Made by a program: the position numbers and the translations under genes. Below are positions 1 through 28,904 of a DNA stretch of 28,904 nt, one piece after another. Source of the DNA: Pleurostoma richardsiae (taxonomy: Eukaryota > Ascomycota > Sordariomycetes > Calosphaeriales > Pleurostomataceae); the NCBI GenBank assembly GCA_030052745.1, contig JANBVO010000100.1, positions 1 through 28,904 of the forward strand, in the 5' to 3' direction. The notes below the pieces were generated by a model. That model saw nothing but the letters and a program-made list of their open reading frames with translations. It searched no databases and had not been told where the DNA came from. Each line of letters starts with the position of its first letter. Position 1 is the stretch's first letter.

Positions 1-566
1 GATATGAGGAATTGGGATGTGTGCGGGGAGATGAAAAAAGTGGGGGGCGAACACGAGCTTGCAATAGACAGTAACAGCCAATAAGGTCTGCAGCCCAAGA
101 CGACGCCCGCAGGCTATACGTGTTCCGATCCTCGACATTAAGTAAAGCCACGACTATATCCTAGCCGAACAACCCAAGTCTAGGACACCGGCTCGTCGCT
201 TGAGCAAGCCCAGCTCCCGGATTGAGTGACAGGCGGGGTCACCAGCACTGACCGACCTCCTCTCTAAGTTGTAGAATGTCACCGCGAGGCTGCCCCATCC
301 CGGATCGTCGAGTCCGTCCTCCAGCGTCGCAGTATCACGCTCAGAACCATCGAAGTTCCCTCGTCCACGGGTCCTAGAGCACGACGCCGCCCGGGAGACC
401 ATACACGGTCCCAGCTACGAGGCAGCCCGGCCAGCACTGATCGCCAGAAGCCTATATAGCTGCCGGCCATCTCTAACATTAGCCCATAGACGAGACAAAG
501 CCGTTTCCGTGCGCATCTAGCAATCAACACGCTGCTCTAGATCTTACCTTACTCCTCTCTACGACG
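1..566. other. Upstream region without a supported gene
   Basis: Neither strand gives a convincing protein here. The open frames are short, and the predicted peptides are Arg- and Ser-rich in the way GC-rich shadow frames usually are. A TATATA-containing stretch near 462-468 lies about 100 bp upstream of the gene that starts at 567 and could be part of its promoter. That is inference only. Confidence 0.4.
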
Positions 567-1204
567 ATGAGACCTCTCCTCTACTTGCTTATGGTTTTTG
601 ACCTTACTACTTATCTCTCCGCGTACTCTATCCCCTACGTCTCCTTACTACTCGCCGGGCCGCAGAGCGCAAAGACCCTCGACGTTCCGGTATTCTCGGA
701 CTGTAGATATTTGGAAGAAGCAAGGCCCGTCACGTCAAGTAAGAAGCCTCACGAACCCTACTGTCATCTACGCTAAATGCTAATCGGCTCCCAGGCGACA
801 ACGTCACTACGTTAAGCTTCGACGTGCTATACTTTATGGACTCGGACGGGCTATCCCTCAATACGGCAAATCTCACCTAATCGCTTAGCCATGAACTCGG
901 GACGTAGATCGACGCAGACATACTCCTCCACCTAGTCCTCTACACGGCTTCCTCGGCTGACGGCCGGAACTTCCCCTTCACGGCCAACAGCACCGTAGAC
1001 TTCAGTAGCGCGTCCATCCTCCTAACCAACTACTCCTACTTCATTTCCCTACCGTATACGCAGAGATAGTCAACTACTATCTATGGCGTTTCTACTATTT
1101 CCAGCACCGCGGACGGTGCGTCGACGTCCGACAGTGTCTCTTCCTCTACTGTCCTGTCTTCCTCTACTTCGAGTACTACTCCCACAAGCCTAGCTGGAGG
1201 ATGC
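567..1204 (+). pseudogene. RIP-mutated secreted or surface glycoprotein gene
   Basis: No named family recognised. The ATG at 567 opens a hydrophobic N terminus (MRPLLYLLMVFDLTTYLSAY) that looks like a signal peptide. Exon 1 (567-738) is followed by a 56-nt intron (739-794) with a GTAAGA donor, a GCTAAT branch-like site and a CCCAG acceptor. Splicing keeps the frame into exon 2 (795-1204). Exon 2 encodes a Tyr/Leu-rich domain with several NxS/T sequons, then a Ser/Thr-rich stalk near 1085-1195 of the kind found in fungal wall or plasma-membrane proteins. Three in-frame stops interrupt it: TAA at 878, TAG at 905 and TAG at 1067. Each is one CpA-to-TpA change from a Gln codon. After about 1204 the frame loses its character and the expected transmembrane segment is absent, so the gene is truncated or rearranged. 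Mutation and splicing are clear; the family is not. Confidence 0.7.
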
Positions 1205-1726
1205 AACAAGCGACGGACTTGATAGAGCGATAGAGTCTCGTCGCGTGGACTGTCTTCTCGAGGCAGAACGTCATGAAGACGTGGCCTTATGTCACTGTAT
1301 TCTTTCCGGGTGATGGGTCTCTATCAGGCACAGATGAGGCAGCTAGATGAATAGAGCTCGTCCATATGCACCAATCATATCGTCTTTGACTATTCGCCAA
1401 TAGTGTACTAAACCAGGCCTTTCCTAGTGGGCGCGCGGGTCGAGCATGTGCCCCGCGAGGCAGGGCCTGTCACCACCGTGGTGATACCCCTTCTGTTGGC
1501 GTCTGCGCCTGCCTGTGAGAGAACATCGCGTGATGCGCTGTACAAGACTTGTGGTGAGGTCGCACCGTACCTGAAGCGGCCTCCCAAGACCGAGCCCTCG
1601 GCAACCTGATGCCCTGGCACATGGTTTCAGGCACCATCACGCAGACTCCGGGCCGCTGCATCGCAAACCCGGATCGTGGCTGAAGCCGGACTCGGGGGTC
1701 CTGGCAGCACGCGAGTCGATCCGCAT
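1205..1726. other. Intergenic stretch containing the end of a mutated tract
   Basis: The first part (to about 1400) still has frequent TAG and TA. From about 1420 CpA and TpG become common again, so the mutated tract seems to end near 1400. An open frame continues upstream of the next gene from a GTG at 1676, and a TTTCAG at 1624-1629 could be a splice acceptor. An unseen 5' exon of the 1727 gene is therefore possible. Confidence 0.4.
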
Positions 1727-2227
1727 ATGAAGAGGATTGCCCCTCTGCACCAAGTCCCAGCGTTCCACATCTCAGAGGCTCTGAACATTTATCAGCTTCA
1801 ATTCATTCAGCAATACGTCACGAACATGCCCGACCGGCAGACCGTTATTCTCTGTCAGTGCGTCGACGGAACGGTGGCAGTACGCGAGGACGGCTGCTTT
1901 CCCGAAGCGGGAAGCATGAACGAAGCGGCGCAGTTATACGGGGATAACGTGTGGTTCGTCAGATTCGTCGACATGACGGCCGCGATGCTGGTGTGGCTGG
2001 CGAAGTTCCGCACCTTCCAAGAGGTCCTCGGGAGCCTCTGCTCGAGAGCGATGGACGGCCCTCGCTACTCCTACATCCAGCTGCTCGCCATAGAGGTCGC
2101 CGAGAAGCTCGCCATCCTCAAGACGATGAGGCGGACATACGACACAGACTGGCACCTGGATATCGTCCCCATGCTTCATGAGCTTGCGCGCATCTCCGAC
2201 AGGGGAGCGATCTACGAAGACAAGTAG
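1727..2227 (+). CDS. Hypothetical fungal protein, 166 aa, intact
   Basis: I do not recognise the family. The frame is uninterrupted and ends in TAG. It has balanced codon use, normal CpA/TpG and a natural amino-acid composition. The ATG at 1727 (MKRIAPLHQV) is chosen because the same frame upstream lacks an ATG; the first part of the protein could instead lie in an upstream exon. The product looks soluble and mostly helical, with Trp/Phe-rich segments (DNVWFVRFVD and MLVWLAKFRTF) and an acidic C-terminal end (RGAIYEDK). No signal peptide or membrane helix is evident. It is one of the few genes in the left half without premature stops, and it lies between a mutated gene and a small Cys-motif gene on the opposite strand. 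Function unknown. Confidence 0.6.
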   Translation: MKRIAPLHQVPAFHISEALNIYQLQFIQQYVTNMPDRQTVILCQCVDGTVAVREDGCFPEAGSMNEAAQLYGDNVWFVRFVDMTAAMLVWLAKFRTFQEVLGSLCSRAMDGPRYSYIQLLAIEVAEKLAILKTMRRTYDTDWHLDIVPMLHELARISDRGAIYEDK

Positions 2228-2663
2228 GCCTCGCAGCCAATCTCAGCGAGGCAGTGTGGCGGAAAGGAGCGAACAGGGCATCTTAAATTGCTTGCGAGAG
2301 AGCGTTCTTCAAACCTTCGAAGACAGCACAGCTCAGATACGAAAATTGTGACTCCGAAGTCGCCTTCAGTCGTCAATCGAGAGGTTTTGATGTAAGCCTA
2401 TTGCTACTTGTGATGCGCGGAAGTCCAGGCACAGCCCGGCACCCCGCTTCTCCACCGTAGACTTACGGCGCCATTGCGCGCTGTCTTCCGCCTCCCCACT
2501 TTCCCTCCCGCGCTCCTCCATCCACGCGGTGTCCGGCACCGCCATCCATCACTTCTGCCGCATCTATCGCCAGGCCTTAAGTGTCGTTGCGCGTAGGCGT
2601 CTGTAGAGTACAGTGCGTATTCTCTCGAGCGAAGCAGGCTGGCGCAACGGACTGTGAAACGCT
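2228..2663. other. Intergenic region, nothing recognised
   Basis: The only frames are short and Arg/Ser-rich, consistent with GC-rich non-coding DNA. The sequence is only lightly mutated. It lies at the 3' ends of two convergent genes and probably carries their 3' untranslated regions. Confidence 0.4.
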
Positions 2664-3137
2664 CTAAAAAGTGGCCGGTCCACACGCAAGGGCCGCTTTC
2701 CATTGTTGCGAGACGGAGGCCGAAACGGTCATCCGCAATGGTGGCTCGATCGTGCTGGGCCGTCTGCGATGCGGTCGGGCTAGTCGGGCCCCTGCGTTCC
2801 TTCCCCTATACGAGACGGATCCTTCGATCGAAATCTGGACCTGGAGTCGCGCGATCCCTTTCTGGATCTCGAGGATTTCTATCTTTGCAGCCTCGACTGA
2901 CGTTGGGAACTGTCCGTCTCGTTGCCAGCGGTCGACAGCGTCCTGCAGCTTTCGCACTCGGCGTTTCTTTGTAGAAATCTCCGTGCACAACCTACACAGT
3001 CCAGGCGCAGGAACAGTGGCGAAGACAAGCCGAAGGCCGCAAGTCTCACCGACTCGGCGTTCCTTAGGGTATTGCTGACGAAAGAGGCCCCATCTCCAAT
3101 GTTTACAAGTCCAGCGAACGTGGTCATAGAAGTACAT
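2664..3137 (-). CDS. Small fungal Cys/Trp-motif protein (hypothetical)
   Basis: Read on the minus strand from the ATG at 3137. The N-terminal half resembles a small protein type I recall as recurrent in filamentous ascomycetes: a Trp-rich start (RWTCKHWRWGLFRQQ), then GETCGLRLV, then a CRLC pair, then a basic, probably coiled helix (KKRRVRKLQDAVDRWQRDG). The paired Cys residues may bind zinc; the role is unknown. In the FRQQYPKE segment the Tyr stands where I would expect Cys, which a TGC-to-TAC RIP change would explain (inference). The conserved part ends near 2830. The remaining 50 or so residues look unlike the rest and may be read-through past an unrecognised intron or stop. There are no premature stops. 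The 3' end is uncertain. Confidence 0.55.
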   Translation of the reverse strand: MYFYDHVRWTCKHWRWGLFRQQYPKERRVGETCGLRLVFATVPAPGLCRLCTEISTKKRRVRKLQDAVDRWQRDGQFPTSVEAAKIEILEIQKGIARLQVQISIEGSVSYRGRNAGARLARPHRRRPSTIEPPLRMTVSASVSQQWKAALACGPATF

Positions 3138-3681
3138 CTTAACGAACTTACGATATTCCCGAGCTTACACTGGGCTGCTCCGATCGGCGGGCGAACGACC
3201 ATCTTATCTTACAGGCAACGACTGCATAACTACACGGCCCGTAGATGTCTATCGTGTCTGTAGAAATAATCAGTCGTCGAATCAGAGACACGGATTCGAC
3301 GCAGCCTGGAGGCCACCGAATGAGACAGCAAATGTCCTTACGACGAAACGACCCATCGTTGAAGATGTACGGATTATGCAGCAGGGGGGACGTTAATTAA
3401 CCAAGGGCCCGCCGCTTAACGCTGGAGACCTACGAATCTCGGGTGAACGCCACTATCTGCTAGAGAACTACATTACCGGGTTTTGGTGGGCGACACTTAT
3501 AGACGCTATTAGCCTCGCTAAAAGTAGAGGAGGTAATACTTACGAACAGCAATAGAGGACTAACAAGAACGTAGAACGACTCCGTATTCTACTATCGCAT
3601 GCACAATCAACAACGGACGACGTCAGGGGCATCGGCCAATGACAAAATAGAGTATACTAAAGACGAACGCTACGAAACATG
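3138..3681. other. Intergenic region, entry into a heavily mutated tract
   Basis: Around 3270 the sequence changes to frequent TAG, TAA and TA with retained CpG. No frame can be followed with confidence. The minus-strand frame of the coiled-coil gene can be read past its TAG at 3682 for some way, so part of this could be its C terminus or 3' untranslated region. Confidence 0.4.
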
Positions 3682-4330
3682 CTAAAAGTACATCATGACT
3701 AGACGTAGTTTGCTAACCTTGCCCTTGAGCTCCGTGAGCTCCTTCTCCAACGAAGAAATGCGTCCGTCCCTTTCGATGATCTGAAGGCGTAGCTTGTAGT
3801 TTTCCGTAATCTCTTCATCTAGATCCTCTACGACTTCTTTCTGTTGAAGCTAGAGATCCGCGTACGCGCCCGTAGACCTTACGTAACTCGACTCCTGCAG
3901 AATTAACGCCCTCTGCGCCTCCTACGATTGGCCGATTGCCTTCGAATAAGCTGTCGCCATCTCTACATATTTCTATAGTAGTAGCCGTATCTTAGATTTA
4001 AACAAAGGAAGGAGGGAATTACTGCGGTACTTCTTCTCTATTATAGACAGGAACGAGGTAATGTGTTCCTAGATGTATTAGTAAGACGTAGCCGTGTGTG
4101 GAGAGCTCACTCACGAAGATATTTTCCCCGGGGAGCGGTGGAAGCATTGGGTTCTGCACCTCCGGGATCGGCGTGGGGACGTGCACCGGGCGGTACGACT
4201 CCAGCTTGAGCAGCGGCGTAATTTCGCCTACGGAGTCGGGAGCCGGACACGGCGGGGGAGGATCAGGCATGATCGCATCTGTATGTCCGAGCAGCCGCCG
4301 AACACCGAGACCAAGTTTGAGGTCTGGCAT
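3682..4330 (-). pseudogene. RIP-mutated coiled-coil protein gene, two exons
   Basis: Exon 1 runs from the ATG at 4330 to 4115 (72 codons). It encodes a Pro-rich N terminus (MPDPPPPCPAP, then VPTPIPEVQNPMLPPLPGEN). A 46-nt intron at 4114-4069 has a GTGAGT donor, a TACTAAT branch site and a CTAG acceptor. Splicing enters exon 2 in frame (EHITSFLSIIEKKYRS). Exon 2 is helical and ends in a clear coiled coil of charged heptads (EDLDEEITENYKLRLQ, then ISSLEKELTELKGKVSKLR). Three TAG stops at 3973-3975, 3922-3924 and 3850-3852 fall in this frame, each readable as Gln. A fourth TAG at 3682-3684 may be the true end or another mutated Gln. A Pro-rich head with a coiled-coil tail suggests a scaffold or adaptor, but I recognise no named family. 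The in-frame intron makes the gene model strong. Confidence 0.7.
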
Positions 4331-4346
4331 GGTGAGAGTATCGTTG

Positions 4347-4410
4347 GTTATGAAGTAGCGTCGTTATGTAGTAGTGTTGTTACGAAGCGGCGTCGTTACG
4401 GAGCAGCTTC
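4347..4410. repeat. Four tandem 16-bp repeats upstream of the coiled-coil gene
   Basis: Four adjacent 16-bp units with consensus GTTAYGNAGYRGYGTC occupy 4347-4362, 4363-4378, 4379-4394 and 4395-4410, starting 17 bp upstream of the ATG at 4330. They differ at a few positions, mostly C/T and G/A. They could be a leader repeat or clustered binding sites. No function can be read from the sequence. Confidence 0.6.
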
Positions 4411-4499
4411 GGTTATGGGCACGTACCGCTGGCGGTCGGTTCTTATACACCTCTCGGAAGCTCCTAGAGAGCCCGGCTTGCTCTTCGCCTAAATTAACA

Positions 4500-5040
4500 C
4501 TTTTAAGAGGAAAAAATAGAAGTCACTATATATAAGTTTAACCTGTTAGACGGCGATGCGAAAACATGGGTAGGGTAGTAGAGGTATGCCTTTGTGCGAA
4601 GAAATAGCGAGATAGTAGAGGTGTTGATAGTTTAGCGTTAGTTGTGTGCCAATTATGGTAACGGTGCCGTAGGCCGATAACTGATTAGTTGTATCTTACT
4701 TTAGTTACTACAAGACGCCGCCTTGATTGGCTTATTCCTGTAATAGTGACTGCTTCGGGAGTTGAGGGCAAGCTTGTATTAGAGTGGTGATGTAGTTCGT
4801 AAGTATGCTCTAGTTACGACCGTGAGTAGGGTCCAAGGCCGACCTATTGTACTGGCGTATACCCTTTATGGTGTATCTTATCGGTACTAGTGGGCTGACG
4901 CTTTGCACGTATAGTAGCGCGTTCGTGTGGCGGAGTGGTGCACCATGCGTGCGGCTTAGACGCTTGATGTTACTAACGCCCTGTTGGGTTCATTAGTTAC
5001 CTGTAGAGAGGATGCTATAGCATCTGTACATTCCAACCTA
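4500..5040 (-). pseudogene. Possible RIP-mutated gene remnant, unresolved
   Basis: On the minus strand one frame stays open apart from TAA and TAG over most of 5010-4530. It reads as a hydrophilic His/Thr/Ser-rich protein (for example LEHTYELHHHSNTSLPSTPE). A plus-strand frame also gives a hydrophobic stretch, but it contains several TGA stops. I prefer the minus strand because its stops are nearly all TAG or TAA and the neighbours on both sides run the same way. No family, start or intron was found. The plus strand has almost lost CpA but keeps TpG, so mutation here was confined to plus-strand cytosines. This may be a gene or merely low-TGA mutated DNA. Confidence 0.3.
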
Positions 5041-5790
5041 TAGCCGGGATTTCGGCAGCTGGGATTTGGGCAGCTGGGATTTGGGCAGCCGAGATTTCGA
5101 CAGCCGGGATTTCGATAGCTGGGATTTCGACAGCTGGGGTCTCGACAGCTGGGGTTTCGATAGCTGAGATCTCGATAGTTAGGATTTCGACAGCTAGGAA
5201 ATCTCCAAGCTGTTAAATTCTAAGCTGCTAAATCCCAAGCTTCTAAATTTACAAGCTGGGAAATCTAACAGCTGGTAAACCTTAAGCTGGCAAACCCTAA
5301 GCTGGGGAATGTACAAGCCGGCAAATCTGCTAGCTGGTAAAATTCAAGCTGGGAAATTTGTAAGCTGCTAAGCAGGCATGTCTGCGAGCGGGGAATCTCG
5401 AGCTGGCAAAACCTAAGCTGTTAAATCCAACAGCTGGTAAATCTGTAAGCTGGTAAATCTACAGCTGGTAAAACTTAAGCTTTTAAATCCAGTAGCTGGT
5501 AAATCTGTAAGCTGGTAAATTTATAGTTGGTAAAACTTAAGCTGGAAAATCTGTAAGTTGGGAATGTTAATAGCTGGTAAAAGTCTAGCTGGATAACTTT
5601 ACAGCTAGTAAAACTTAAGCTGGGAAAGTTAATAGCTAGTAAAACTTAAGTTGGAAAATCGACAGCTAGTAAAACTCAAGCTGGGAAACTAACATCTAGC
5701 ATCTTAAGCTAGTAATCTTAGTTAGTAATTTCAGCTAGTAAAGCCCGTAAGCTAGGAATTTAACAGTTAGATATTATAAGTTAAGACTAG
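5041..5790. repeat. Minisatellite of about 50 units of 14-17 bp
   Basis: About 750 bp consist of degenerate tandem units. The first ten (5041-5190) are exactly 15 bp, with consensus CAGCTGGGATTTCGA. The rest drift to 14-17 bp, with consensus near AAGCTGGTAAATCTG. One longer unit near 5356-5400 carries an insertion. The core GCTGG is kept on the left. On the right (beyond about 5590) it becomes GCTAG or GTTAG, which is the TpG-to-TpA change expected of RIP. The exact 15-bp period on the left could encode five-residue repeats (QLGFR or SWDFD forward), but the indels elsewhere break any frame, so I treat it as non-coding. It ends just before the 3' end of the next minus-strand gene. Confidence 0.9.
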
Positions 5791-5795
5791 AAGTC

Positions 5796-5867
5796 TCACC
5801 GCCTTTTAGTTTATCCGGATAAGGCAATAGCTTCAAATGAACTGCCTGGATTAATTTAAGGCGGTGA
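5796..5867. repeat. Imperfect inverted repeat at the minisatellite edge
   Basis: A perfect 10-bp arm TCACCGCCTT (5796-5805) pairs with AAGGCGGTGA (5858-5867). The loop contains a further palindrome (TTATCCGGATAA) and a weaker complement (TGCCTGGATTAA). It spans the stop codon and 3' flank of the minus-strand gene ending at 5851. It could be the end of an old inverted-repeat element or a chance fold. No second copy was noticed in the window. Confidence 0.45.
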
Positions 5868-6941
5868 AATCTTAGAGTACTCGACTTACGTCTAAGCCTA
5901 GGGCGAACTTCATTAACGCGTCTTTAATTGGACGTATATTATACGTCGTGCTTAAATTGACCTCTAACCTTCCCACCTCTTCCAGCTCAGCAGCCGTATA
6001 GATTAACTCAGTAGGACATGCCCGTTAAATCTCCTACGTTATCGTCTTGAGGGTTTCATTTGTAATGTAGGTGTTCCTTCTTTAAGGGAGCATGTTAACG
6101 TAGATTGCTAGCGTTTAAGGGCGTGTACGTACATGAGTATTTCCGTTTTGTTAGAGTACGTTATTAGTAAGAGCAACGAACGTTCGATAAAAATAAACGT
6201 GCGCCTGCTTAGGCGTATACGTCTCTTTATTATCCGTCGGACGGGTAAGTCGAAGACTGACTTCTACGTCCTAAGGTATATATTAAGGGCGATTGTAGCA
6301 TCCCTACGTCCGACCGTACTAAAAACCGCGCTATCTCGCCTATTCCGGCGGATGATTTCTCGAAGAGAAGCTAGCATTTATAGTAGCTACGCATACGCAA
6401 GCCTTAATAGGAGAGGGCCGCTCTCGTCGCCGGCGATAGCATCGTCTACGGCCTTAAAGGCGGCTTAGACGTGCTTATCTATGCATATACCGTCGTATAG
6501 TAGAGCGGTCTTATGCAAGAGCGTGACTTATGATCGATAAATCTCTTCGCAATAGTTTATAAAGAAGAGCGCAGCGTCGGGTCTAACTAAACTTAGCGTA
6601 AGACTGCGCTCGAATTCTTTTAGAGGCATGTTCATTAAGCGATTCGGGTTTCGTTTAGCGACATAATACTCTAGCGTTGATAAGTAGAAGAAGAAGTTAA
6701 GCGAGTTTCCTTCTCTCGATGCTTCCTCGACTTATTTTTAAGGCTTTAGTTTCCGGTTTACTCGTGGTTCGAGGTCTAGTATTCCGGCCGTCGAAGCCCA
6801 GGTCTCGGCTCATGTGCTCCGCAGTGGCCCGGTCTCCGGCCCTTGCGCCTGCTCCGAAGCCCCGTACCCGACTACCTGGCCCTCCACTTCCGAGCTAAGG
6901 ATCAGCGTCCGACAACCGGACAGCGAAAAATATATAGCCAT
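5851..6941 (-). pseudogene. RIP-mutated gene of unknown family, at least two exons
   Basis: On the minus strand one frame runs from a candidate ATG at 6941 to 6133. It then crosses a 56-nt intron (6132-6077; donor GTACGT, branch-like GTTAAC, acceptor AAG) into an exon ending at a TAA at 5851-5853. The join restores a continuous frame (TEILM then NTYITNETLKTIT). The protein starts with a Gly/Gln/Glu-rich, probably disordered segment. A helical domain follows (NSLNFFFYLSTLEYYVAKRN, then FINYCEEIYRS), then a basic region, then AELEEVGRLEVN and PIKDALMKFALGLDVSRVL. About ten TAG or TAA codons interrupt it. The one TGA, at 6810-6812, may be a mutated CGA. I do not recognise the family. Start and N terminus are the weakest parts. 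It is divergent from the BTB gene at 7053. Confidence 0.65.
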
Positions 6942-7052
6942 AGCTAATCGGTAGCCTCTAATCTCACGATCGCCGATTACATAAACTAGATACAGGAAGA
7001 AGCAAACTTTCATTGGCATCGAAGACAGTATCTCGTGAACATAACATATAAC
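6942..7052. promoter_or_regulatory. Short divergent promoter region between two mutated genes
   Basis: If the starts at 6941 (minus) and 7053 (plus) are right, only 111 bp separate two divergent genes, suggesting a shared promoter. The segment is AT-rich, with ATAACATATAACATG immediately before the plus-strand ATG. The minus-strand frame stays open through it to an ATG at 7067, so an overlapping minus-strand start is the alternative. Confidence 0.35.
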
Positions 7053-8136
7053 ATGTCGTACTACCAAGCCCCGCCGAACTATAATCCGCTGGACATAAAG
7101 CCCGAGGAGTTCAAACAGTAAGCATACCTATACCGAACAAGACATTCGTCGTTACTAAGGAACGTACCCCAGATTTCTAAAGACGAAGCTATTTAAGTTT
7201 ATTGTAGGACGTAGCAGAGCAGAAATCTACATCCACGAAGGCTTACTATCTCGCTTATCGCTCCCACTCCGTTCCCTAATCAGGGGCGGCGCGGGGTCTC
7301 TAGAAGGGTATGTAGTCTACGAAGAGGTCGACGAGGACGTCTTTACGCGTTTCGCCTAGTTCTTCTACGCCGAGACGTACAAGAACTTTGTACCCGTGGA
7401 AGATAGCGACCGTGGCAGCCGCCCTGGCAGAGCTACCTACATCTCGGTAAATACGGAGGCGCGGCAGGGCAACATCGACCCTAGCGGTTCTATATTCCCG
7501 GAGGCGTCCCCCATAGTCGCACAGCCGGTTCAAATCCAGGACGCCTTCCAGCTGCCTTACTCGCTGGCGTACTATATGATGACTGCAGACCGTACACACA
7601 GCCTGTTCTGCAGATTTTACGGGTTCGACAGGCTCGATACTATAACGTACGACTACGGTTTCAAGAGCGAAGGCGGTCCTTCTAAAAAGAAACGAGATTT
7701 TATCTTAGCCTTCATGGCGAAGCACAGAGGCCTCACCGATGTTAAAAATATAAACGTCTAGCTAACCATCTAGAAGACTAAACGAGCATCCCCAGTCATA
7801 TCGTACAAGCGTATCTTCATTGGCCACGCGAAGGTCGCGGCCCTAGCGGACCGGTACGCCATCGCCTCGCTCATAGACCTTATTTGCGCGCACTTGGTCG
7901 ACGAACTGTCTTAGTAGACTATCTCGGCGTTAGCGTTCGTCTCGGACTTCGGAGGACTTATCTACTACGTATATAGTCGCGTGGCCAGAGGATGCGAGCT
8001 ACGCCTGCTTGTGGCGCAGTTCGCCGCTTGTGTGATAGAGGACGTGTTCGGTTTGGAAGGTTGGCTAGCCTTACTGTATAAGGTTCCCGACTTTACGGTG
8101 GACTTAGTAAATCAGATGATAAAACGGTTCGGTTAA
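7053..8136 (+). pseudogene. RIP-mutated BTB/POZ-domain protein gene
   Basis: BTB/POZ domains mediate dimerisation and often link substrates to cullin-3 ubiquitin ligases. Exon 1 (7053-7117, MSYYQAPPNYNPLDIKPEEF) is followed by a 55-nt intron (7118-7172; GTAAGC donor, TACTAAG branch, CCCAG acceptor) and exon 2 (7173-8136). Exon 2 begins with the typical fungal BTB core: LFKFIVGRSRAEIYIHEGLL, GYVVYEEVDEDVFTRF, then FFYAETY. A long variable insert follows, then the usual C-terminal helices (IGHAKVAALADRYAIASLID, LLVAQFAACVIEDVFG, MIKRFG). Five in-frame stops, all TAG, occur at 7357, 7759, 7771, 7912 and 7915, each one change from CAG. The final TAA at 8134 may be natural. Domain order and length fit the fungal family, so the assignment is firm; the gene is not functional as it stands. 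Confidence 0.85.
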
Positions 8137-8690
8137 GCGGTAAAGCAAGTCTTCAATACTTGTAACTTAGTCTCCCTCTAGTCTAATAGTCGCAAAGGGC
8201 CAAAGGACAAAATACGGAGGAACGATATGTGTAAACGCCTGATTCCCGTTCTTAGAGGTCGGGATCTCGAATGTCGTTTTCCGGTATTCCGTAGTATAAC
8301 AACTGTCTTCGCCTTTCTTTCTCAAGCTCTTCCTACAAACAGCAATATTTAGAATCGTTTATCGCCGTTACGTTCCCTCGTACGAAATAAGAGTAACTTC
8401 TGCTATCCCTATAACTCGCCAAAGGCGACAGTCAAATTTAAAGGTAACGAAAGATACTATCTATTTTCGAGATCATCTACGTTGCCTTTGAGGCGATCTT
8501 TAAGGTCACGCCTCAAGAGTAGTCAAGCGTCAAGGGCAGCCAAAAGGGCTCACATTGAGAGGCCGATGCTTGTAGTATTAACGAAGCAGCGTAAAATTAT
8601 CCTTCAGAAGTTATTACTGAAGATTTAAGTGTAGTAAAGCTTAGTCGAGTAGAACTAGAAATGTATGCGTGTGTGGTCGCAGCTGAGCAC
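8137..8690. other. RIP-mutated intergenic region between convergent genes
   Basis: This TA-rich, TAG-rich stretch lies between the BTB gene (plus) and the large minus-strand gene. No frame of useful length could be followed in either direction. It probably holds both 3' untranslated regions. Confidence 0.4.
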
Positions 8691-10800
8691 TCATTTGCTC
8701 GTTACTTTGCCTAGTAGATTCGTATGATGCCCCGGCCTTTCTTTACTCTTTCCTTCATGTTTCTTCTCCGTTTTATTTTCCTAAACGGATGGTTCGGTAT
8801 CTGGCTATAGGAGGATAGGACATGAACTTATGTACACTTTTTAAAGAATGGATAGTAGTTATAGGAATAAACTAGCTAAATTAATTTGTAATTCTTTCGA
8901 AACTATCTTTAAGATAAAGAAGGGCTGTAATATTGCCGACCGGTAAACTGCTTACCGGTACGTTAAATACGCTAGCTAATTGATAGTCGTATTAATAAAT
9001 TGCGTCGGGTCTTTAACTATAACCTTCATACTTTCCTACGAAACGATAAGAGTCTTATCCTACATAGGACTCTGAAATCGCTCGGCTTCCGGCTTAAAAA
9101 AGAAAGTAACTTAAGACTCCTGTCCGTGTTCTCCCGTGGGCCGAACTGTAGGCCTTATGATCCGAAAAGAGTCGAGAAACAATAATGTCACATCAGCGTC
9201 GTTCCCGTCAGTATCTTCCTAGGTTCGCTCGCGTCGGTTCCAGTTGAACTTCTCCCCTTCTTTGAGGAGTAGCTTTACTTGAAGAAGTCGAACGCGTACG
9301 GTACCTGTCCTACGACGCTTCTGTGGCGGTCGCCGTCGGCTTTTGGAACGGCTCCTTTTGCGATGGCCGTGGCCGGGCCTGTCGGTGTCGGGCACGGATT
9401 CAGCTCTATCAGCTTCGACGCCTTGATAAGGACTGATTCGGGTCGGAGAGGAGGTGAGTAGCCTACCTAAGCTGCTGTCATCCGTGCTTGACGAGTCCGG
9501 CGTATGTGTCGAAGTAACTGGAATGTCGGCCACTAGATCGGAATACTCATCCTTAATGACGATAGGATTTATATAGGAGCCGAGTGCAGAAATAGGAGCT
9601 AAGCTGTTACTTCTAATACCTGACGTAGTCCCTGCCGCTGACAGATCAGCCAGTTCGGGTGCATTACAATTCGTTAAAGGGATGTGGCTGGTTTCGGTGC
9701 ATAACGCGAATGCAAGAGGAGCATTTATATTACGACGATCAGGCCATCGAGACGTGGCCTTAGCTCTAGACTCCTTCCCTGGAAGATGACCAATTACAGT
9801 AGGAGACGATGTAAGAGGTGTCGGCGGATCTTGTCGCAGATCTTGCCTATTGGCGGTCGTGGCAGTAGCTGAATCTGCGCCAACTTCGACGGTCCGAGCA
9901 TTATCCCCGCTTATAGGTTAAGAGATGGAGGTCGGGGTGGTAAGGTTGATGTAAGGAGAGCGGCTACCGGAAGGTATGTCCATATATGCGTTCTCGACAT
10001 TGTTAGCCATCTTGTTACCTGCCTCACTCTATGCCTCCTCTCGAGAAGGGAGAATAAAAGTAGCTGGAGAGACAGCGAATATACTTTAGTCGGCTCCTTA
10101 ACTAGCCCATAGAATGACGAAAGGCACGGCGTACTCCAACGCCCCCCGGTATTCAGGACGGGAACTATTTTAGTTACAGTCTTCGGTAAAGATCGTGAAT
10201 ATGTCCGAGAGATTGTTATTATTACCGTAGGTCATATCTTTATCCGTAAACGTAGTCGGATTGAATAGGTTAAGGATTGTATCGAAGTAATTAAATGGAT
10301 AAAGAGCCATCGATGAGAAACTATTAAGATACACGGCTTGAGGACGTTGAACGTGTAAGATCAGAAGATAGTTGGCGGAAGAGCTTTAGAGCCAGGAGGG
10401 AGAGCAGGTCTTTAAGTACTCGAGTAAGGGAACCCGGTCGGACTTTCGGGGTAGCTGGAAACAGGAAAGATACGCCGTCTCAATCCGACAAGGCAAACGA
10501 CGAGTTTACAGTTAGAATGTTTCATAGGCCCGATTGAACCATTCCCCCGCGCTTGGTAGAGCAATCCTTTCCGCCCCTGCTCGTCAGTACGGGCCATATC
10601 TAAGAGGCGAGGAGTCCGTTGATATCACTCGGCGTGGTACAAGCCGTGTTCCAGGCAAGGAGAGACCTCGAGCCAGTCACCGAGCCCTGAGTGGACGTAG
10701 ATGAGGAGCCTTCTGCCTCTCTCTGCGCTCCCTTCAGAAGAGTTTCTACAACGAAGAAAAATAGGTTCAGACAAGATCGTAGCAAGGTATCTCGCTGCAT
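8691..10800 (-). pseudogene. Large RIP-mutated gene, about 685 codons, unknown family
   Basis: One minus-strand frame runs from 10454 to a TGA at 8691-8693, 587 codons, interrupted by sixteen TAG or TAA codons and no TGA. An upstream exon (10800-10510, starting MQRDTLLRSCLNLFFFVVET) joins it in phase across a 55-nt intron (10509-10455; GTAAAC donor, pyrimidine-rich CTGTTTCCAG acceptor). That exon has one TAG (10600) and one TGA (10522). Order: hydrophobic or signal-like start; Tyr/Phe-rich globular region (ANYLLILHVQRPQAVYLNS, YPFNYFDTILNLFNP, ALEYAVPFVILWAS); a long Ser/Thr/Pro-rich disordered region; a bipartite basic nuclear-localisation-like stretch (RKRSRSKSRRRPPQKRRR) near 9330-9370; a C-terminal domain (NADVTLLFLDSFRI-like start, then ESMKVIVKDPTQFINTTIN); and a Lys-rich tail. 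I recognise no family. The basic region suggests a nuclear protein. A further 5' exon beyond 10800 is possible, because GTAAGT at 10858-10863 (minus strand) followed by GACTGAC and ATGCAG looks like an intron. Confidence 0.65.
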
Positions 10801-19246: not shown

Positions 19247-19758
19247 GGAAACAGAGAGTGCAGGCTAGACAAGGTGTAGATCGAGTGGAAGTGCCCGGGG
19301 CCAGAACAGCTCGACCACCTGGGGGAAGGCGTACCGCTACTGCGGGGAGAGCTCTTATAAGTCAGGGGGCTCTATCTTATCAGGCTCACAAGGTCATGCC
19401 CCGCCGTTGCCCGCCTTCGCTCCCTCCCGCCGGAGCTATCCTACACGTTGTCTCCTGTCTGCGCCAATAGGTGTCTCTGTAGACATGATCTTAATGCTAC
19501 AACCTGCGTACGCTGTTGCCGAGGGCAGCCCATGCGTCTCCAACCACGTTGTTTCTCCTATCCCGTCGCTGCCGCGGTGGTCTCGCAGCTTGCCATGGGG
19601 TTGGGAACCTGATGTCAAGTCTAGAGGCGGGATTGTGTATACAAGACTGTAGGGGCTATGAAGGTCGCTATTCGTACAGAGGAGCTCTAAGCAGTAATAT
19701 ACACAGTACCGTATCGTACATGTCTAGAAGCCATACTGTTCAACAAACCAGCCGAAAT
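19247..19758. other. Intergenic region at the left edge of the unmutated island
   Basis: CpA and TpG are normal here, in contrast to the beta-lactamase-like gene beside it, so the mutated tract ends close to 19,250. It should contain the promoter of that gene (reading left) and the 3' region of the C2H2 gene. The open frames are short and not convincing. Confidence 0.45.
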
Positions 19759-21153
19759 TCAAATGCCCAGATTCTCCATATGCCCGGACATCGAAAACAG
19801 AGCGGGATCGATGAGTTGGAGAAATGATGTGCAGCTATCAAGGGAAGATACGGTCCCGCAGCTGTCCATTCTACTCGATAAGTTTTTGCCCCCTGGGCTC
19901 CCTAGATCCATCTTTGTCTTCTTCGACATATGACGTCCGTCCTCCCAGCTAGGCCTGCGCTTGGTCCCGTCTGGCCTGCCCTCGGCTACCTGCGCGGTTT
20001 CGTGATATTGAAACGAAGAGGCACATGCGTCCTGCGACTGGAAGAGGAAGTTCCTGGAACTCGAGAAGCTGCCGTTCGTCGCATGGGACAAGGACAGGCA
20101 GTCGTCCTCGGAGCGTGGCCCGAATCCTAAGGCTAATTGCGAGAGAGCTGGATCGGCAAGCATCCGGTCCGCAGAAGCGCACAGGTCTGCTCTCTCTAAG
20201 TCCTTCTGTTCACTTCCTCTTCGCGGCTGGTCGGGCAGTCCTTTGAGACAGGGGAGATCCCCGGCAAGGCACTCTGCCCCCTCTTCCAAGTGTGCAACGT
20301 GATGGTCGTCTTCACCCTTGATCCGTTCGCGGGCCGGAGGATCTGAGCCGTTCTCAGTCCGAGCGTTGGAGTCGGCGGACAGGAGTGGTACATTCGGCGG
20401 GGAGTCGTGCTTGTCGACCTCAGACTGCGAGCCCATGGCTTCGACTGATGAGCTGGGGGGGTAGTCTTGTGCTATGGCTGTGTACTTCTTGACGACCCTT
20501 TGAAGCATCGCAGGTAGTTCAGCCCAATCATAGATATTATTAATCCCCGAGATCATTCTTTGACTTAATTGAATTGCTTGCCAGAGCGTAGACTGCTTTT
20601 GTACGGCGCTGATTGAGGCCTTGTGGCACCAAAGAGCGTTTCGGATGCATCTGGAATCGTCCTCGGGAAATGGCTCTTGTATCCCGAGAAGCAGACTGAT
20701 TAAGTGCCTGAAGTCACATGCCGTAATAGCGAAACCCTCCCCGTTTTTCCAGCAGCGGATGCGGGTGATCTCTGATCGCCCTCTGGGAGTGTCAAGATGA
20801 AATTTCAGTGAGAGCTCATTTGGGCTCTTATCTGGACTCTCATCTGGACTCTCATCTGAGCTCTCTTCCGATGTGGTGACAAACGCGATACGGTGGCACT
20901 TCTGCTGCATTTCCTCTGTCCAGTTTTTCGTGAATGCGTCCAGCGGTCCGCTGATGATCAGCTTTGCCGGCGTGCCGACTCCTCCGTTGATTCGACGAAA
21001 CTTGGGACTCCTAGACGGAGCATCCGGCTTAACGCTGTCATGATGTCTCCGGTGTCTCCGTAGGTTAGCCATAGTGCTGTAGGCTTTTGGGTAATCTTTT
21101 GGGCAAAGATCGCAGTGGAACTGGCCGTCTCGAAAACAAGATGCACGCAACAT
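19759..21153 (-). CDS. C2H2 zinc-finger protein, 464 aa, intact
   Basis: Probable nuclear DNA-binding regulator. The uninterrupted frame starts at ATG 21153 and ends in TGA. A single C2H2 finger lies at residues 12-38: Cys14 and Cys17 (HCDLC), then His34 and His38 (LRRHRRHH). The Cys-to-His spacing is 16 residues rather than the usual 12, so the finger tip is enlarged. Then come a basic linker, an acidic repeat (SSDESPDESPDKSPNE, near residues 97-112), a globular helical middle (DFRHLISLLLGIQEPF to LQRVVKKYTAIAQD), a Ser/Asp/Glu-rich disordered half, and a basic stretch near residue 415 (KRRPSWEDG, then KKTK) that could be a nuclear localisation signal. A one-finger protein with a long disordered tail is common among fungal accessory regulators. 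Codon use is normal and there is no sign of RIP. The exact start could differ if an upstream exon exists. Confidence 0.75.
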   Translation of the reverse strand: MLRASCFRDGQFHCDLCPKDYPKAYSTMANLRRHRRHHDSVKPDAPSRSPKFRRINGGVGTPAKLIISGPLDAFTKNWTEEMQQKCHRIAFVTTSEESSDESPDESPDKSPNELSLKFHLDTPRGRSEITRIRCWKNGEGFAITACDFRHLISLLLGIQEPFPEDDSRCIRNALWCHKASISAVQKQSTLWQAIQLSQRMISGINNIYDWAELPAMLQRVVKKYTAIAQDYPPSSSVEAMGSQSEVDKHDSPPNVPLLSADSNARTENGSDPPARERIKGEDDHHVAHLEEGAECLAGDLPCLKGLPDQPRRGSEQKDLERADLCASADRMLADPALSQLALGFGPRSEDDCLSLSHATNGSFSSSRNFLFQSQDACASSFQYHETAQVAEGRPDGTKRRPSWEDGRHMSKKTKMDLGSPGGKNLSSRMDSCGTVSSLDSCTSFLQLIDPALFSMSGHMENLGI

Positions 21154-22300
21154 TCTGGTGAATATCTGAGCAGGAAGATGCTGCTCAACACCATGCGTGG
21201 TCTGGCCTTAGACTGATAACAAAGCGGAGAGATGGTTGATTCACCAGAATCCTCGCGTCTGGCGCAGTTATATCTCCTAGCCTGCGTGACGGCGGAACGT
21301 AGCCGTCCGGAACCAGGGGCTGCTCCCTCCAGATCCGACCCCTGACCAGCACGAAATGAGAGGAGGCGGAACCATTGTTGGCCACCCAGGCTGTGATCAC
21401 CGTGGTGACTCCATGTCCCAGCCGAGCGCAAGCCGAGACGCCAGGGAAGTGCGTCGCTCCGCTGGCCGACGAATGAGAGGCGGCAGCGAGATGAGGCGGG
21501 TAGTGTGCCCGCGAGTCCTGGCCGGGATGTATATCGTATCGGACGCTGCAGTTGCTCCAGGAGGATGGCAGGACGTGTTATGGAAGCTGCAGGGTTAGAT
21601 AAGCATGGCGGCGCCACGACCCTGGTCTCGATTGGGTGGGCCGTTCTGGAGTCCTGCAAGAGTACCCGGAGAGGCCTGCATCTTGTGCCGCTAGCGAGGC
21701 CCTATTTGACGCTAGCACATGGTGGGCCAGCTCGACAAGGACCGCCGTGTCCCTATCTGACCCCCTGCGGCTCTGCACCCCGGTGCCCTCCATATGAGGC
21801 TTAGGGCGGGACACTGTGTACACCATCCACCAGGGGTGATCGGCGAGCGCGAGGTCTCCACCGCAGGACGGCGCTCACCACGGGTCCATGGCTCTGCAGA
21901 ACAGCGGCCTGCAGGCTGGCCATCTACCTCCGGCTGGCCTGACATGACTGGGCAAAGTGGCTTCCTGCGGTGTGCCTATCACTCCGAGAGCTGGCGGTCA
22001 GTGAGACCTCTGGGCCGCCGTGGGAAGCCCGCATCCACCTTCCCCTGCCTATCAGAGTGTACTGCTGCTGAAGGGGAAGCAGTCCGCGCAGCCGATGCAG
22101 CTGGTCACCTCCTTCTACCGCGGCCGGACTACCAAAGAGGGCTAAAGTGAGGGGTAACCGTCATGTCCTCATCGAGACACCTGGATGCTTCTACAAGCCT
22201 TGCAGACATCTGCTGGCGAAAGACATCCTCCTTCGGCTGCCGCGGAGAACGCAGCCTGCTCGGCCCTTGTCTGGTTCGCCTCACTTTGCAGGCTCTGTTC
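21154..22300. other. Intergenic region, GC-rich and unmutated, no gene recognised
   Basis: CpA and TpG are abundant. Open frames exist in several phases, but all are Arg/Pro/Ser-rich and lack domain-like segments, typical of shadow frames in GC-rich DNA. A near-palindrome (ATCACCGTGGTGA, about 21396-21408) resembles one at about 1470-1482. A non-coding RNA cannot be ruled out. Confidence 0.4.
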
Positions 22301-25159: not shown

Positions 25160-25184
25160 TTCGTCGAGTCACATCGCTCAGCCA

Positions 25185-25321
25185 CAATCGGGATATTTAA
25201 AGACAGCTAGGCCCATTCAATGACCACTTTTTTTCTACACTGCTTCCAGCCCATTGCATGCTTGTACTGCCTGATAACGATAGCGCCCTTATCCAGCCTC
25301 GTCTGGCTTCGACTGTTTCAC
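25185..25321 (+). promoter_or_regulatory. TATA element and leader of the kinase gene
   Basis: GGGATATTTAAAGAC (about 25190-25204) is a good TATA-type element. An ATG at 25220 lies only about 20 bp downstream, probably upstream of or at the transcription start, so it is unlikely to be the translation start. The C/T-rich stretch after it suits a leader, which favours the ATG at 25322. Confidence 0.5.
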
Positions 25322-26204
25322 ATGGAGACGGTGGCAATGCCTGTGGGCTCAGGAGGAACAGCCGTGATTCATCGCGTCTCTCCCAGCCATGTACGCAAAG
25401 TACCGCATCGGGGCCATGCTCATGACATCGAGCACGAACGGCGAGTTCTGAAGCGGCTGGGACGTCATCCTCGTATCATCAAACATCTCGATGCAGGAGG
25501 ACCTAGCGAACTCACCCTAGAATACCACGAACGCGGGGATCTAAGAAGCTATCTCTCCTCCGGCCGGACGGCTCCCGTCCGGAAGTTTGCAGTACAGATA
25601 ATTGAAGGGCTGGCATATCTGCACTCTAAAAGTGTCATCCACTGTGACTTGAGCCCGCGCAACATTCTGGTCACTGCCGATATGGATGTCGTCCTCATCG
25701 ACTTTGCCGGTTCTTCCTTAGATGGCAGTCCACCCTCGATGGTGGCCGAGTCGAGGTTCTACCGGCCGCGTCGTCGGTGGAAGGACGCGATGACGGTTCA
25801 GGATGATCTTTTTGCTCTGGGCTCGACTCTCTATGAGCTGTTCAAGGGAGAGATGCCGTATCCGAATCGCACGGATGATGAGGTTGCTCAGTTGTACCAT
25901 GTCGGGTCCTTCCCCGCCGTCCATCAGATACCGATTGGAAGAATCATCGCCAAGTGTTGGTCCGGTGGCTATGGTAATGCCACAGATGTCCTAGATGACT
26001 TCAGGCTGGTATGTCCCTTATTTCCCACGCCTGACACGGCGCTAACTAGCAGATTTACAGCAAGATGGGCCACAACCAGTCGCTCTTGCCGGATCGACCG
26101 ACTCGGTATTTGGCGGCCTTGGTCTCGTCGTGTCCCTCTACCATGCACTTGGTAGTTGGTTCCGTGTCGCTGCCAGTATCATTCGGAATCTGAGAAGCTG
26201 GTAA
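25322..26204 (+). CDS. Small protein kinase-like gene with one intron
   Basis: Exon 1 (25322-26008) and exon 2 (26061-26204) flank a 52-nt intron (26009-26060; GTATGT donor, GCTAAC branch site, TTACAG acceptor). The kinase landmarks are a Gly-rich loop (VGSGGTAVIHRV), a probable beta-3 Lys (HVRKVPHR), a Glu-rich helix C (DIEHERRVLKRL), the catalytic loop HCDLSPRNILV (HCD in place of HRD, with Asp and Asn kept), DFAG in place of DFG, ESRFYRPRRR in the activation-segment position, and DDLFALGSTLYELFKGEMPY in the F-helix region. All residues needed for phosphotransfer seem present. The enzyme is small, without regulatory domains, of a type common as accessory genes in Aspergillus and Penicillium. 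With the chosen acceptor, exon 2 encodes a hydrophobic tail (VFGGLGLVVSLYHALGSWF) that could be a membrane anchor. An alternative AG at 26051-26052 would give a different tail. No sign of RIP. Confidence 0.8.
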
Positions 26205-26590: not shown

Positions 26591-26812
26591 CTCTTGCTCC
26601 CGGAGAAACATCCTTCCTGATAGTGTAGTCAGTTCGACGCGAGAATCCAGATACGTAGCATGTAAACTACGGCCGGTATTTCGTACCGCGTCCTCTAAAC
26701 TGCCATTTGAATCTCTCTAGCCCTTTATTCTCAGAGTTCCGCTAAGTATTTATCCAGACTTTCAAATTGCTTCAGATAGCCGCTAAAAATCACGAATCCA
26801 GTACCAATATTA

Positions 26813-27442
26813 TCATATCGTCAGGAGATAGTTCCGTAAATATCCACGCAGAGCACCCGAAGAGATCCTAAGACATGCTAGCAATGCAGTTATCGTCGTA
26901 GAACGATGTAATAAATACGATTTTAAGGTAAGGTTGTGTTCTGTTATCTAATCGGCGTCTCTTCTCTTAACTAGCCTCGAAAGAACTATATCGTTTCCTA
27001 CTGATACAAGTTAGCGGCCTACCAGAAGTGCGCACGCTTAAGCGACATACCTCCCTCCCCTAGAGAGCTTTAATGTTGACGAAAGAGTCGTGGGAATCGG
27101 TAGCTCCATATCGTAAACCAGACGTTGAGCCTGTAACGATCCCTTACGCGTTAAGGAAGACGATAATGCTTATCCTGACGGAGGTTATTGCTAGGAGACG
27201 CGGATCTCGATGCGCGAGATATTAGGAGCGTCGGGTACGTTAATGTAGTTAGGGAGGAACAAGGCTGGCCCGAAGAGTACTAGTGTCCGGGGTTAGTCTG
27301 GAACAATTTAAGTTACAGGAGTAGGACATCGTACGTAGGTGTCGCATCCGCTGCCGTCTTCTGTCGGGCAGTACTACAGGTTGGACCCCATGGATAGCCT
27401 CTTTAGACAGGGCGTCGCCACGTCCTGAAGGCGACGGGTGGA
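26813..27442 (-). pseudogene. Possible RIP-mutated gene remnant on the minus strand
   Basis: Between a TGA at 27443-27445 and a TGA at 26813-26815 one minus-strand frame carries nine TAG or TAA codons but no TGA over 210 codons. Parts read like protein (PALFLPNYINVPDAPNISRI, QAQRLVYDMELPIPTTLSS, NDIVLSRLVKRRDAD). A different minus-strand frame farther left (26760-26900) contains a good-looking segment (LSPDDMIILVLDS), perhaps another exon. No domain, start or intron was established. Because mutated DNA is poor in TGA anyway, this is suggestive only. Confidence 0.35.
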
Positions 27443-27705
27443 TCAAGGAGCGGAAGAAAGAAGGCGCAGAAATGAGCGGCGGGAAGGGTGGGAAGGCGGA
27501 AGATACACTCCCACTAGCACTAACAGCTCGAACAGACTCTCCTCGGTTAAACCGGCATAAGACTCAGGGGGTCTCGCAGGCACCGGAGGACGGGCCCCCC
27601 TCGCACCGTCTCACCAACCAACGCCTGACCTGATCTAGTCATACATCTATTAATCTTGTCCCGGTATTTGAAAGAGCACCGAACAGACAAGGACGGGAGA
27701 GGAGG

Positions 27706-27879
27706 ATGGCATTCTCTAGGGATTCGGTCAAGTTTCCACCTCTAAATACATGCTTCGACATACGCTTCCCGCGTTACTTGTCCAACGCTGGCTTTGTTGA
27801 GGCTGCTCAAGCATTTTTTTATACTATGATGGGCGACCTTCTTCTGGTCGGTAATCGGGGCAGACCTCATAATCCCTGA
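27706..27879 (+). CDS. Short open frame, 57 aa, possible first exon
   Basis: The ATG at 27706 opens a 57-codon frame ending in TGA at 27877, with plausible composition (TCFDIRFPRYLSNAGFVEA, then FFYTMMGDLLLV). A GTAATC near 27851 followed by CTGAT and GTTAG looks like a short intron, and protein-like sequence follows in more than one frame to about 28060. It may be the first exon of a mutated gene. No family recognised. Confidence 0.35.
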   Translation: MAFSRDSVKFPPLNTCFDIRFPRYLSNAGFVEAAQAFFYTMMGDLLLVGNRGRPHNP

Positions 27880-28904
27880 TTAATGTCAGTTAGATCAGCT
27901 GCTATCCTTTATAGCCTCACTGACCTGTACTCGTAACTCGTTACATTAAGTGTGTACCTCCGCTGGGTTCTCCAGTACTCTGAACACTACTCTCTGGTAA
28001 CGTACCGCAGGTGGAGACAGGAGAATTCAATCTAGCGATGTTAGGACGATCGTTACTGGGACAGCACGGCATACTTTATTCCATCCACACATGGTAAGAG
28101 ACCTCTAACGTGCGAACCATACGGACCATTTCCGGACCACGGCAGCGGACCACGAAGGCGCCCTTAAATGAGAAACTACGAGGGGTACTAATGCTGAACC
28201 CGTGTTAGCCAGCTAGGATCAGCCCTTAGCTACGGGAGATAGCGGCCCTGGCGTGAGGAGACCAGCCCCGGTAGAGGCGAGAAACGAAGTACTCTCCTTC
28301 TTAACTCGGACTACCTAAGATAGCTCCTACGCTACAGAAGCGATATAGCCTATGAGCTCGATAGCCGGCAGTAGGACAGTACTGCCGGTCGAGGAGGGCT
28401 ACCCTGGTACTATTGGAGCCGTCCGCCGGTAACAAGTCTTTACGCGTGGTTACTAGGTACATACCACCCGGCTAACATGTAATGTCGCTAACCGAGCTCG
28501 TCTGTTTGGCCTAGTGGTAGTAGCCACCCTTAGGTGACGCCCTTATAACTTCGGAACTGGCGGGCGCCCCTTAGCAACTCCGAGGCAAGATGCTCCGCGC
28601 CCAGGAATCAACACACCCTCGGCACAAGTCCATGTCTAAGTTAGCTCCGAATCACCCCAATGCAGAATACGGCGTCACGAAGGGAGGCCGTCGAGCTTAT
28701 GTACTGCCCTGAAGACGCCGGTCTGCCGCTGAGCTCTATGGACGCGAGCGCAGCAATGCCACGTCGGCAGCTCTTCAGATGCGGACTACTCTCCGGTCAC
28801 CTTACGAGATCCTTGCAATCGCATCTACAAGTATGCGGACCACATGCCGTCCTCCCCGGCAGGCGAATTGACTCGCGAGGTGCCTATCCCCTTCTCGGAC
28901 GGTG
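27880..28904. other. Mutated region, no gene resolved
   Basis: TAG and TAA are frequent to about 28,560 and less so beyond. Plus-strand frames between 28,600 and the window end stay open in two phases (for example a phase with VELMYCPEDAGLPLSSMD), so a gene may enter from the right, but no domain is recognisable. Near 28,508 TGGCCTAGTGGTAG resembles a tRNA A box, but no matching B box follows. Confidence 0.35.

What the first reader, a model, noticed from the sequence alone, without database searches (positions are those of the whole stretch)
1..28904. RIP-type hypermutation recorded as TAR-only stops inside readable frames
In the best models nearly all premature stops are TAG or TAA and very few are TGA: large minus gene exon 2, 16 TAR and 0 TGA; BTB, 5 and 0; RING, about 10 and 0; beta-lactamase-like, 12 and 1. 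CAG/CAA to TAG/TAA, or TGG to TAG, are the products of CpA-to-TpA change on either strand, while TGA cannot arise that way. This points to RIP rather than neutral decay, and lets the original proteins be followed by reading TAR as Gln or Trp.
Basis: partly seen in the sequence, partly recalled or inferred. Interest (0 to 1): 0.8.

Follow-up and report, generated by a model that had tools for sequence, protein, structure and literature searches.

The report
One-sided hypermutation of duplicated fungal DNA
This piece of what looks like a fungal genome is a second copy of another stretch of the same genome that has been riddled with C-to-T changes by the fungal anti-duplication defence called RIP, while its twin stayed clean.

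Summary
The window is a whole 28.9-kb contig (C3) of a 39.4-Mb genome. Both RIP indices are shifted where predicted and normal at 19.3-26.5 kb. Decisive is a sister copy, contig C121, with normal indices. Over window 75-19316, 1578 of 19140 aligned bases differ: 1506 transitions, 72 transversions. CpA sites differ at 857 of 2585, with the T in the window at 848 of 857. In 24 frames open in C121 the window has 109 premature stops, 105 TAR and 4 TGA; C121 has Gln or Trp at 101. Context-free mutation gives 33% TGA.

The block continues in contig C9 across a transposon and spans 43.9 kb of C121. The clean 7-kb centre is where the copies are diverged.

I read it as RIP of an ectopic duplicate whose native partner was renewed by outcrossing (inferred, 0.45). 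A RIP-exempt compartment for C121 is the main rival (0.27). RIP is ordinary; the clean one-sided pair is the interest.

The parts
1..74 (+). Outer end (about 73-bp terminal inverted repeat) of a roughly 4-kb TA-flanked DNA transposon; the assembly breaks here and the other side continues in contig C9
   Evidence: 38 matches in the own genome, several 100% identical, several as inverted pairs about 4 kb apart; 14 of 14 inspected ends (8 elements) are followed by TA, and the C9 and window flanks join to the C121 site
75..19316 (.). RIP-mutated copy of C121:16295-35668
   Evidence: 1578 of 19140 aligned bases differ, 1506 transitions; CpA 857 of 2585, window carries T in 848 of 857
1501..3000 (.). 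RIP cold stretch inside the duplicated tract
   Evidence: CpA mutated 11 of 200 in three 500-bp bins, against 22% to 42% in the bins on either side
8979..10385 (-). Frame of 469 aa open in C121, with 9 TAR and no TGA in the window; no Pfam match
13041..14174 (-). F-box protein frame (378 aa, open in C121), 2 TAR stops in the window
17642..19264 (-). Serine beta-lactamase-like (PF00144) frame (599 aa, open in C121), 14 TAR and 0 TGA in aligned codons
19317..26327 (.). Centre without RIP: only patchily alignable to C121:35669-46962 (72-88%), transversions 4.5-6.4% in aligned pieces against 0.27-0.65% outside, different gene content
19759..21207 (-). Open frame of 482 aa with a DUF7082-like match below the curated cut-off; C121 has a 928-aa DUF7082 frame
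25211..26155 (+). Open frame with a protein kinase domain (PF00069); no aligned counterpart in C121
26328..28904 (.). Second RIP-mutated tract, copy of C121:46963-49444
   Evidence: 26328-28400: 165 of 2057 differ, 155 transitions, CpA 90 of 271, T in the window at 89 of 90; the last piece, 28463-28904, is less clear (44 of 418 differ, 37 transitions, 7 transversions; CpA 12 of 55, CpT 9 of 55)

Best explanation
The window is the RIP-mutated member of a two-copy segmental duplication (contigs C9 + transposon + C3 against C121, spanning 43.9 kb of C121, of which 11.3 kb is a diverged centre). RIP recognised the pair where the copies were near-identical and changed C to T, mainly at CpA on either strand, in the C9/C3 copy. 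That broke its frames with TAR stops. The 7-kb centre was left clean because the two copies were already too different there (shown: it is diverged and unmutated; inferred: that this is the cause). C121 is clean most likely because the C9/C3 block is ectopic and C121 is the native locus. RIP acts before karyogamy in the nucleus that holds both copies; progeny can then inherit the mutated ectopic copy from that nucleus and an untouched native allele from the mate, so an outcross renews the native copy however often RIP has struck (inferred, about 0.45). The transposon landed in a TpA that C121 lacks, so probably after RIP there. The confidence figure is for RIP of a duplicate; the outcross step alone is 0.45.
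For: Sister copy and extent. One search found no third copy for the 5 kb of C121 used as query. Spectrum, context and direction; the same in the 1.5 kb of C9 compared base by base (140 transitions, 3 transversions, 62 CpA changes all in C9). Stops map to Gln 79, Trp 22 of 109, against 33% TGA in the context-free control. Strand patches: 341 runs against 475.6 +/- 15.8; same strand 0.60-0.62 up to 50 bp, falling to 0.5 at about 1 kb. C121 indices normal (0.62/1.23 and 0.62/1.25 in the paired parts). C121 has T at 4 of 949 CpA sites outside the frames and 7 of 1960 inside, against 303 and 645 for the window, so site-by-site purifying selection is not the cause. RIP-like change elsewhere: transposon copies differ by transitions only in 7 of 12 compared pairs. 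A DNA methyltransferase with BAH domain (DIM-2-like by my reading) and a second partial DNA methylase that may be RID. The same cross design (extra copy in one parent only, on another chromosome) gives heavy RIP of the extra copy in N. crassa: PMC11969663 section 25.
Against: For RIP: 4 of the 500-bp bins reach 50% of CpA sites or more, the others less, and CpT is also hit (12%), so it is milder than classic N. crassa RIP. RID is not proven; only a half-match was seen. For the outcross step: no population data, no chromosome positions, and read depth of the contigs is unknown. If the native allele at any RIP round had shared the window's centre, the centre should have been mutated; it was not, so the partner always carried a different centre or the centre was exchanged later.
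Confidence: 0.9

Rival explanations
1. C121 lies in a RIP-exempt compartment (a supernumerary chromosome or block) and C3/C9 in the RIP-competent core, so every round mutates only the core copy.
For: Published precedent: in Fusarium poae RIPped transposon copies were detected only on the core genome, and supernumerary blocks have moved into the core (PMC4994206 passages). C121 has normal indices over its 50 kb. Several rounds are suggested by the mixed strands.
Against: Chromosome assignment of C121 is unknown. Apart from C9/C3, the parts of C121 used as queries found only 66-74% relatives elsewhere, and no transposon load like that of F. poae was seen, though none was specifically sought.
Confidence: 0.27
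2. The two contigs are alleles of one locus (two nuclei, strains or haplotypes in one assembly); the window haplotype was mutated in its own past against a duplicate since lost.
For: Only two copies over the part searched. Small contigs that begin at transposon ends. A centre with different genes flanked by about 1% non-RIP divergence looks like an idiomorph.
Against: It needs an additional lost duplicate. RIP in the window stops where homology to C121 stops, as expected if C121-like DNA was the partner.
Confidence: 0.15
3. Neutral decay or CpG-deamination of pseudogenes.
For: Frames are broken and the copy has no evident function.
Against: 21 transitions per transversion, CpA preferred sevenfold over CpG, direction 848 to 9 at CpA, 105 TAR to 4 TGA against 33% TGA in the control.
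Confidence: 0.01
4. Both copies were mutated and C121 kept clean by purifying selection on its genes.
For: Proposed for histone H3 in Pseudocercospora fijiensis (PMC6710886 passages).
Against: C121 is as clean outside the chosen frames (T at 4 of 949 CpA) as inside (7 of 1960). The non-frame set may hold some unrecognised exons.
Confidence: 0.04

Closest known systems
Repeat-induced point mutation (RIP), as in Neurospora crassa
   Same: C-to-T at CpA on either strand, strand patches, confined to duplicated DNA of high identity, TAR stops
   Different: Only one of two copies is mutated over about 21 kb of compared window; moderate level (33% of CpA sites) with a CpT component (12%)
[quoted passage not shown]
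   Same: RIP in one part of the genome and not in another; large blocks shared between the parts
   Different: There shown for transposon families by compartment; here for one multi-gene segmental pair, and the compartment of C121 is unknown
Histone H3 capture and RIP in Pseudocercospora fijiensis (PMC6710886, passages seen)
   Same: One intact original beside RIP-broken copies
   Different: There hundreds of copies and an original said to be held by selection; here one pair, clean outside frames as well
RIP-mutated rRNA pseudogenes beside functional rDNA (PMC5555474, passages seen)
   Same: Mutated and functional paralogues in one genome
   Different: Multi-copy rDNA, not a single segmental pair

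Membership tests
RIP-mutated duplicate | Excess of C:G to T:A transitions | tested here: met
   1506 transitions, 72 transversions of 19140 aligned
RIP-mutated duplicate | CpA preference on either strand | tested here: met
   CpA 857/2585, CpT 307/2605, CpC 112/2246, CpG 125/2751
RIP-mutated duplicate | Shifted RIP indices | tested here: met
   compared with C121
RIP-mutated duplicate | A duplicate of more than about 80% identity and 400 bp in the same genome | tested here: met
   C121, 90-92% identity over about 21 kb of the window
RIP-mutated duplicate | Confined to the extent of homology | tested here: met
   Clean centre where alignment fails or is 72-88%; within the homologous tract there are also cold stretches
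RIP-mutated duplicate | Strand-biased clusters | tested here: met
   25 of 118 clusters single-stranded against 8.5 +/- 2.5 shuffled; far weaker than the 91.9% reported for one generation (PMC7296669 passage)
RIP-mutated duplicate | Both copies mutated | tested here: not met
   C121 has T at 9 of 857 differing CpA sites. Usual for a fresh RIP pair; I treat it as not required after segregation
RIP-mutated duplicate | RID methyltransferase in the genome | tested here: inconclusive
   A partial PF00145 match on C49; that it is RID is inferred
RIP-mutated duplicate | Mutations arise in the sexual phase | not testable with these tools
   Needs crosses
RIP-exempt supernumerary sequence (C121) | Located on a dispensable chromosome with unmutated repeats | not testable with these tools
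   Contig of 50,153 bases, no chromosome map

The most novel reading that the evidence does not exclude
RIP in this fungus is directed at one member of a pair by location: the partner serves as the template for recognition over several rounds, yet is itself exempt, giving a stable sacrificial/protected pair of a multi-gene block.
Probability: 0.2. Interest if true: 0.65.

Novelty: new member of a known kind. Interest (0 to 1): 0.4.

Why it matters
A pair with one mutated and one clean copy gives polarity to the changes without any reconstruction. It can calibrate RIP context, strand patches, cold spots and homology limits over about 21 kb of natural sequence. It also makes testable whether one-sided RIP comes from outcrossing or from a RIP-exempt part of the genome, which bears on how fungi keep gene duplicates despite RIP.

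Tried and rejected
Neutral decay and CpG deamination: rejected by spectrum and direction. Per-site purifying selection on C121: rejected by clean non-frame DNA. BTB and RING names: not found by Pfam. A plant-type transposase family (PF04827) for the transposon gave nothing and no control rang, so it says nothing. One search did not list C9 as partner of C121:120-10000 (one of 10 candidates was left unscored), with a shorter query, showed the match, so my first idea that the duplication began at C121:16295 was wrong. In one search, 8 of 16 transposon loci lay in the other orientation, so their 'TE-side' label is wrong and only the other 8 were compared. In one search, 6 of 17 BLAST rows were dropped (four secondary hits of the repeat near 5.1-5.5 kb, the transposon end, and one short hit in the centre); one kept centre row pairs the window with the second unit of a tandem duplication in C121. 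No two-unit TTAGGG telomere repeat was found in either contig.
Full report
What the window is. The window is the whole of contig C3 (28,904 bases) of a 39.4-Mb genome in 136 contigs.

The indices. [quoted passage not shown] CpG is not depleted in the shifted tracts (observed/expected 1.06-1.20), which argues against CpG deamination. The first 1.5 kb is also shifted; 1.5-3.0 and 13.0-14.3 kb are not.

The sister copy. A search of the same genome found contig C121, 50,153 bases. Window 75-19316 aligns to C121:16295-35668 and 26328-28904 to C121:46963-49444, at 90-92% except the last 442 bases (85%). C121 has normal indices (0.66/1.20 overall; highest 1-kb TpA/ApT 1.11, lowest second index 1.00). 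With C121:20001-25000 as query, only these two copies were found.

The mutations. Between window 75-19316 and C121, 1578 of 19140 aligned bases differ, 1506 transitions and 72 transversions (11 of 17 BLAST rows kept). By context: CpA 857/2585, CpT 307/2605, CpC 112/2246, CpG 125/2751. The window has the T in 848 of 857 CpA differences. Over both mutated tracts, 1601 of 12314 C/G sites are C-to-T or G-to-A in the window. Transversions are 0.27-0.65% per block in the tracts, so the copies were probably about 99% alike before RIP (my estimate). The last piece, 28463-28904, is less clear (37 transitions, 7 transversions; CpA 12/55, CpT 9/55).

The stops. In 24 largely non-overlapping frames of at least 100 aa open in C121, the window has 109 premature stops: 68 TAG, 37 TAA, 4 TGA. 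C121 has Gln at 79 (CAG 50, CAA 29), Trp (TGG) at 22, Arg at 7 and Ser at 1. A control with the same number of transitions at random C/G sites gives 60.2 +/- 7.2 stops, 33% TGA. The result stands without two frames in a repeat with many Gln codons (85 of 89 TAR) and in the 4 frames of at least 300 aa (30 of 30 TAR). Some of these frames may not be genes; the PF00144 and F-box frames have Pfam matches over the curated cut-off.

Strand patches and cold spots. Mutated CpA sites form 341 strand runs against 475.6 +/- 15.8 by shuffling. Mutations within 50 bp share the strand at 0.60-0.62, declining to 0.5 near 1 kb; 25 of 118 tight clusters are single-stranded against 8.5 by shuffling. In N. crassa 91.9% of clusters from one generation were single-stranded (PMC7296669 passage). 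The weaker purity here suggests several overlapping rounds, roughly four or five if equal (my estimate); they may fall in one or several crosses. Cold spots at 1.5-3.0 kb (11 of 200 CpA), 13.5-14.0 kb (6 of 54) and 18.0-18.5 kb (4 of 62) are unexplained; the 13-14 kb frame has two stops, so it is not preserved as a gene.

The clean centre. Window 19340-26000 aligns only in pieces (2937 bases), with 218 transitions and 155 transversions, no CpA preference and little direction (CpA 23 to 12). It holds a kinase frame and a DUF7082-like frame; the C121 centre has an AAA ATPase and a longer DUF7082 frame. RIP falls off within about 300 bp of the homology edges, with a mixed bin at 19300-19599 (1.17/1.19) and a normal one at 26200-26499 (0.60/1.24). 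Either the centres differed before RIP, or the centre was exchanged later; I cannot tell.

The rest of the block. Contig C9 begins with the same transposon end and then matches C121 leftward: C9:76-10876 to C121:16290-5502 at 89-90%. The pair thus spans C121:5502-49444, 43.9 kb, of which 11.3 kb is the diverged centre. The 1.5 kb of C9 that I hold is mutated like the window (140 transitions, 3 transversions; 62 CpA changes, all in C9); the rest of C9 was seen only as match positions. So a transposon lies between C9 and C3. All 14 inspected ends of 8 other elements are followed by TA. The target TA of this insertion is absent from C121 and fits a RIP product, so the insertion probably followed RIP there; 992 of 1593 TA in the window tracts are absent from C121, so this alone is not surprising. 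Other copies are themselves mutated: 7 of 12 compared pairs differ by transitions only; one copy (L015, contig C45) shows none of the CpA changes against three others (0 to 80, 113 and 138).

Machinery. PF00145 gives two places: C24, with BAH and methylase domains and a strong match to a solved 1456-aa DNA (cytosine-5-)-methyltransferase (9bap; that this is DIM-2 is recalled), and C49, a half-match that may be RID (inferred).

Why one side only. RIP is described as altering both copies of a pair (RIPCAL paper PMC2621366, passages). Purifying selection does not explain C121, which is equally clean outside frames: T at 4 of 949 against 7 of 1960 CpA. Two accounts remain strong. Outcross renewal: RIP acts in the haploid nucleus before karyogamy, so a cross to a mate without the extra copy can give progeny with a mutated extra copy and the mate's clean native copy; if unlinked, half of the carriers get it at each cross, whatever came before (inference; the cross in PMC11969663 section 25 has the same design, though that section does not report the state of the other copy in progeny). 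Exempt compartment: in F. poae mutated transposons were detected only on the core genome (PMC4994206 passages). I prefer the first (0.45) to the second (0.27).

Literature. Nine searches did not list a paper whose title or abstract start describes a multi-gene segmental pair with RIP confined to one copy, but most were narrow and the library is open-access only, so I do not claim it is unreported. Segmental duplications and RIP in Colletotrichum higginsianum (PMC5576322, passages) were looked at; the passages seen do not say whether one copy was mutated.

Verdict. The observation and the RIP reading are right; the phenomenon is known; the one-sided, homology-bounded pair is a useful natural experiment.

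Noticed in passing
window 1-74; loci L006-L031: A roughly 4-kb transposon with about 73-bp inverted ends and TA flanks; ends are often 100% identical while several interiors are heavily RIP-mutated, as if RIP fades at the very ends. One copy (L015, contig C45) looks unmutated against three others.
   Followed up: partly
window 1501-3000, 13501-14000, 18001-18500: Cold stretches for RIP inside the duplicated tract, not explained so far.
   Followed up: partly
window 19317-26327 and C121:35669-46962: Idiomorph-like centre: diverged DUF7082 frames, a kinase seen only in the window, an AAA ATPase seen only in C121.
   Followed up: partly
L049:4485-6833 (C121): NACHT/NPHP3_N NLR-like frame of 783 aa on the clean copy, outside the window's part of the duplication.
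   Followed up: no
window 5100-5700; C121 21229-22023: Imperfect tandem repeat with many Gln codons in frame; its two frames yield 20 of the 109 stops.
   Followed up: partly
C121:3632-4321 (L049): Tandem array with a 126-base offset, with about 70% relatives on contigs C68, C60 and C56.
   Followed up: no
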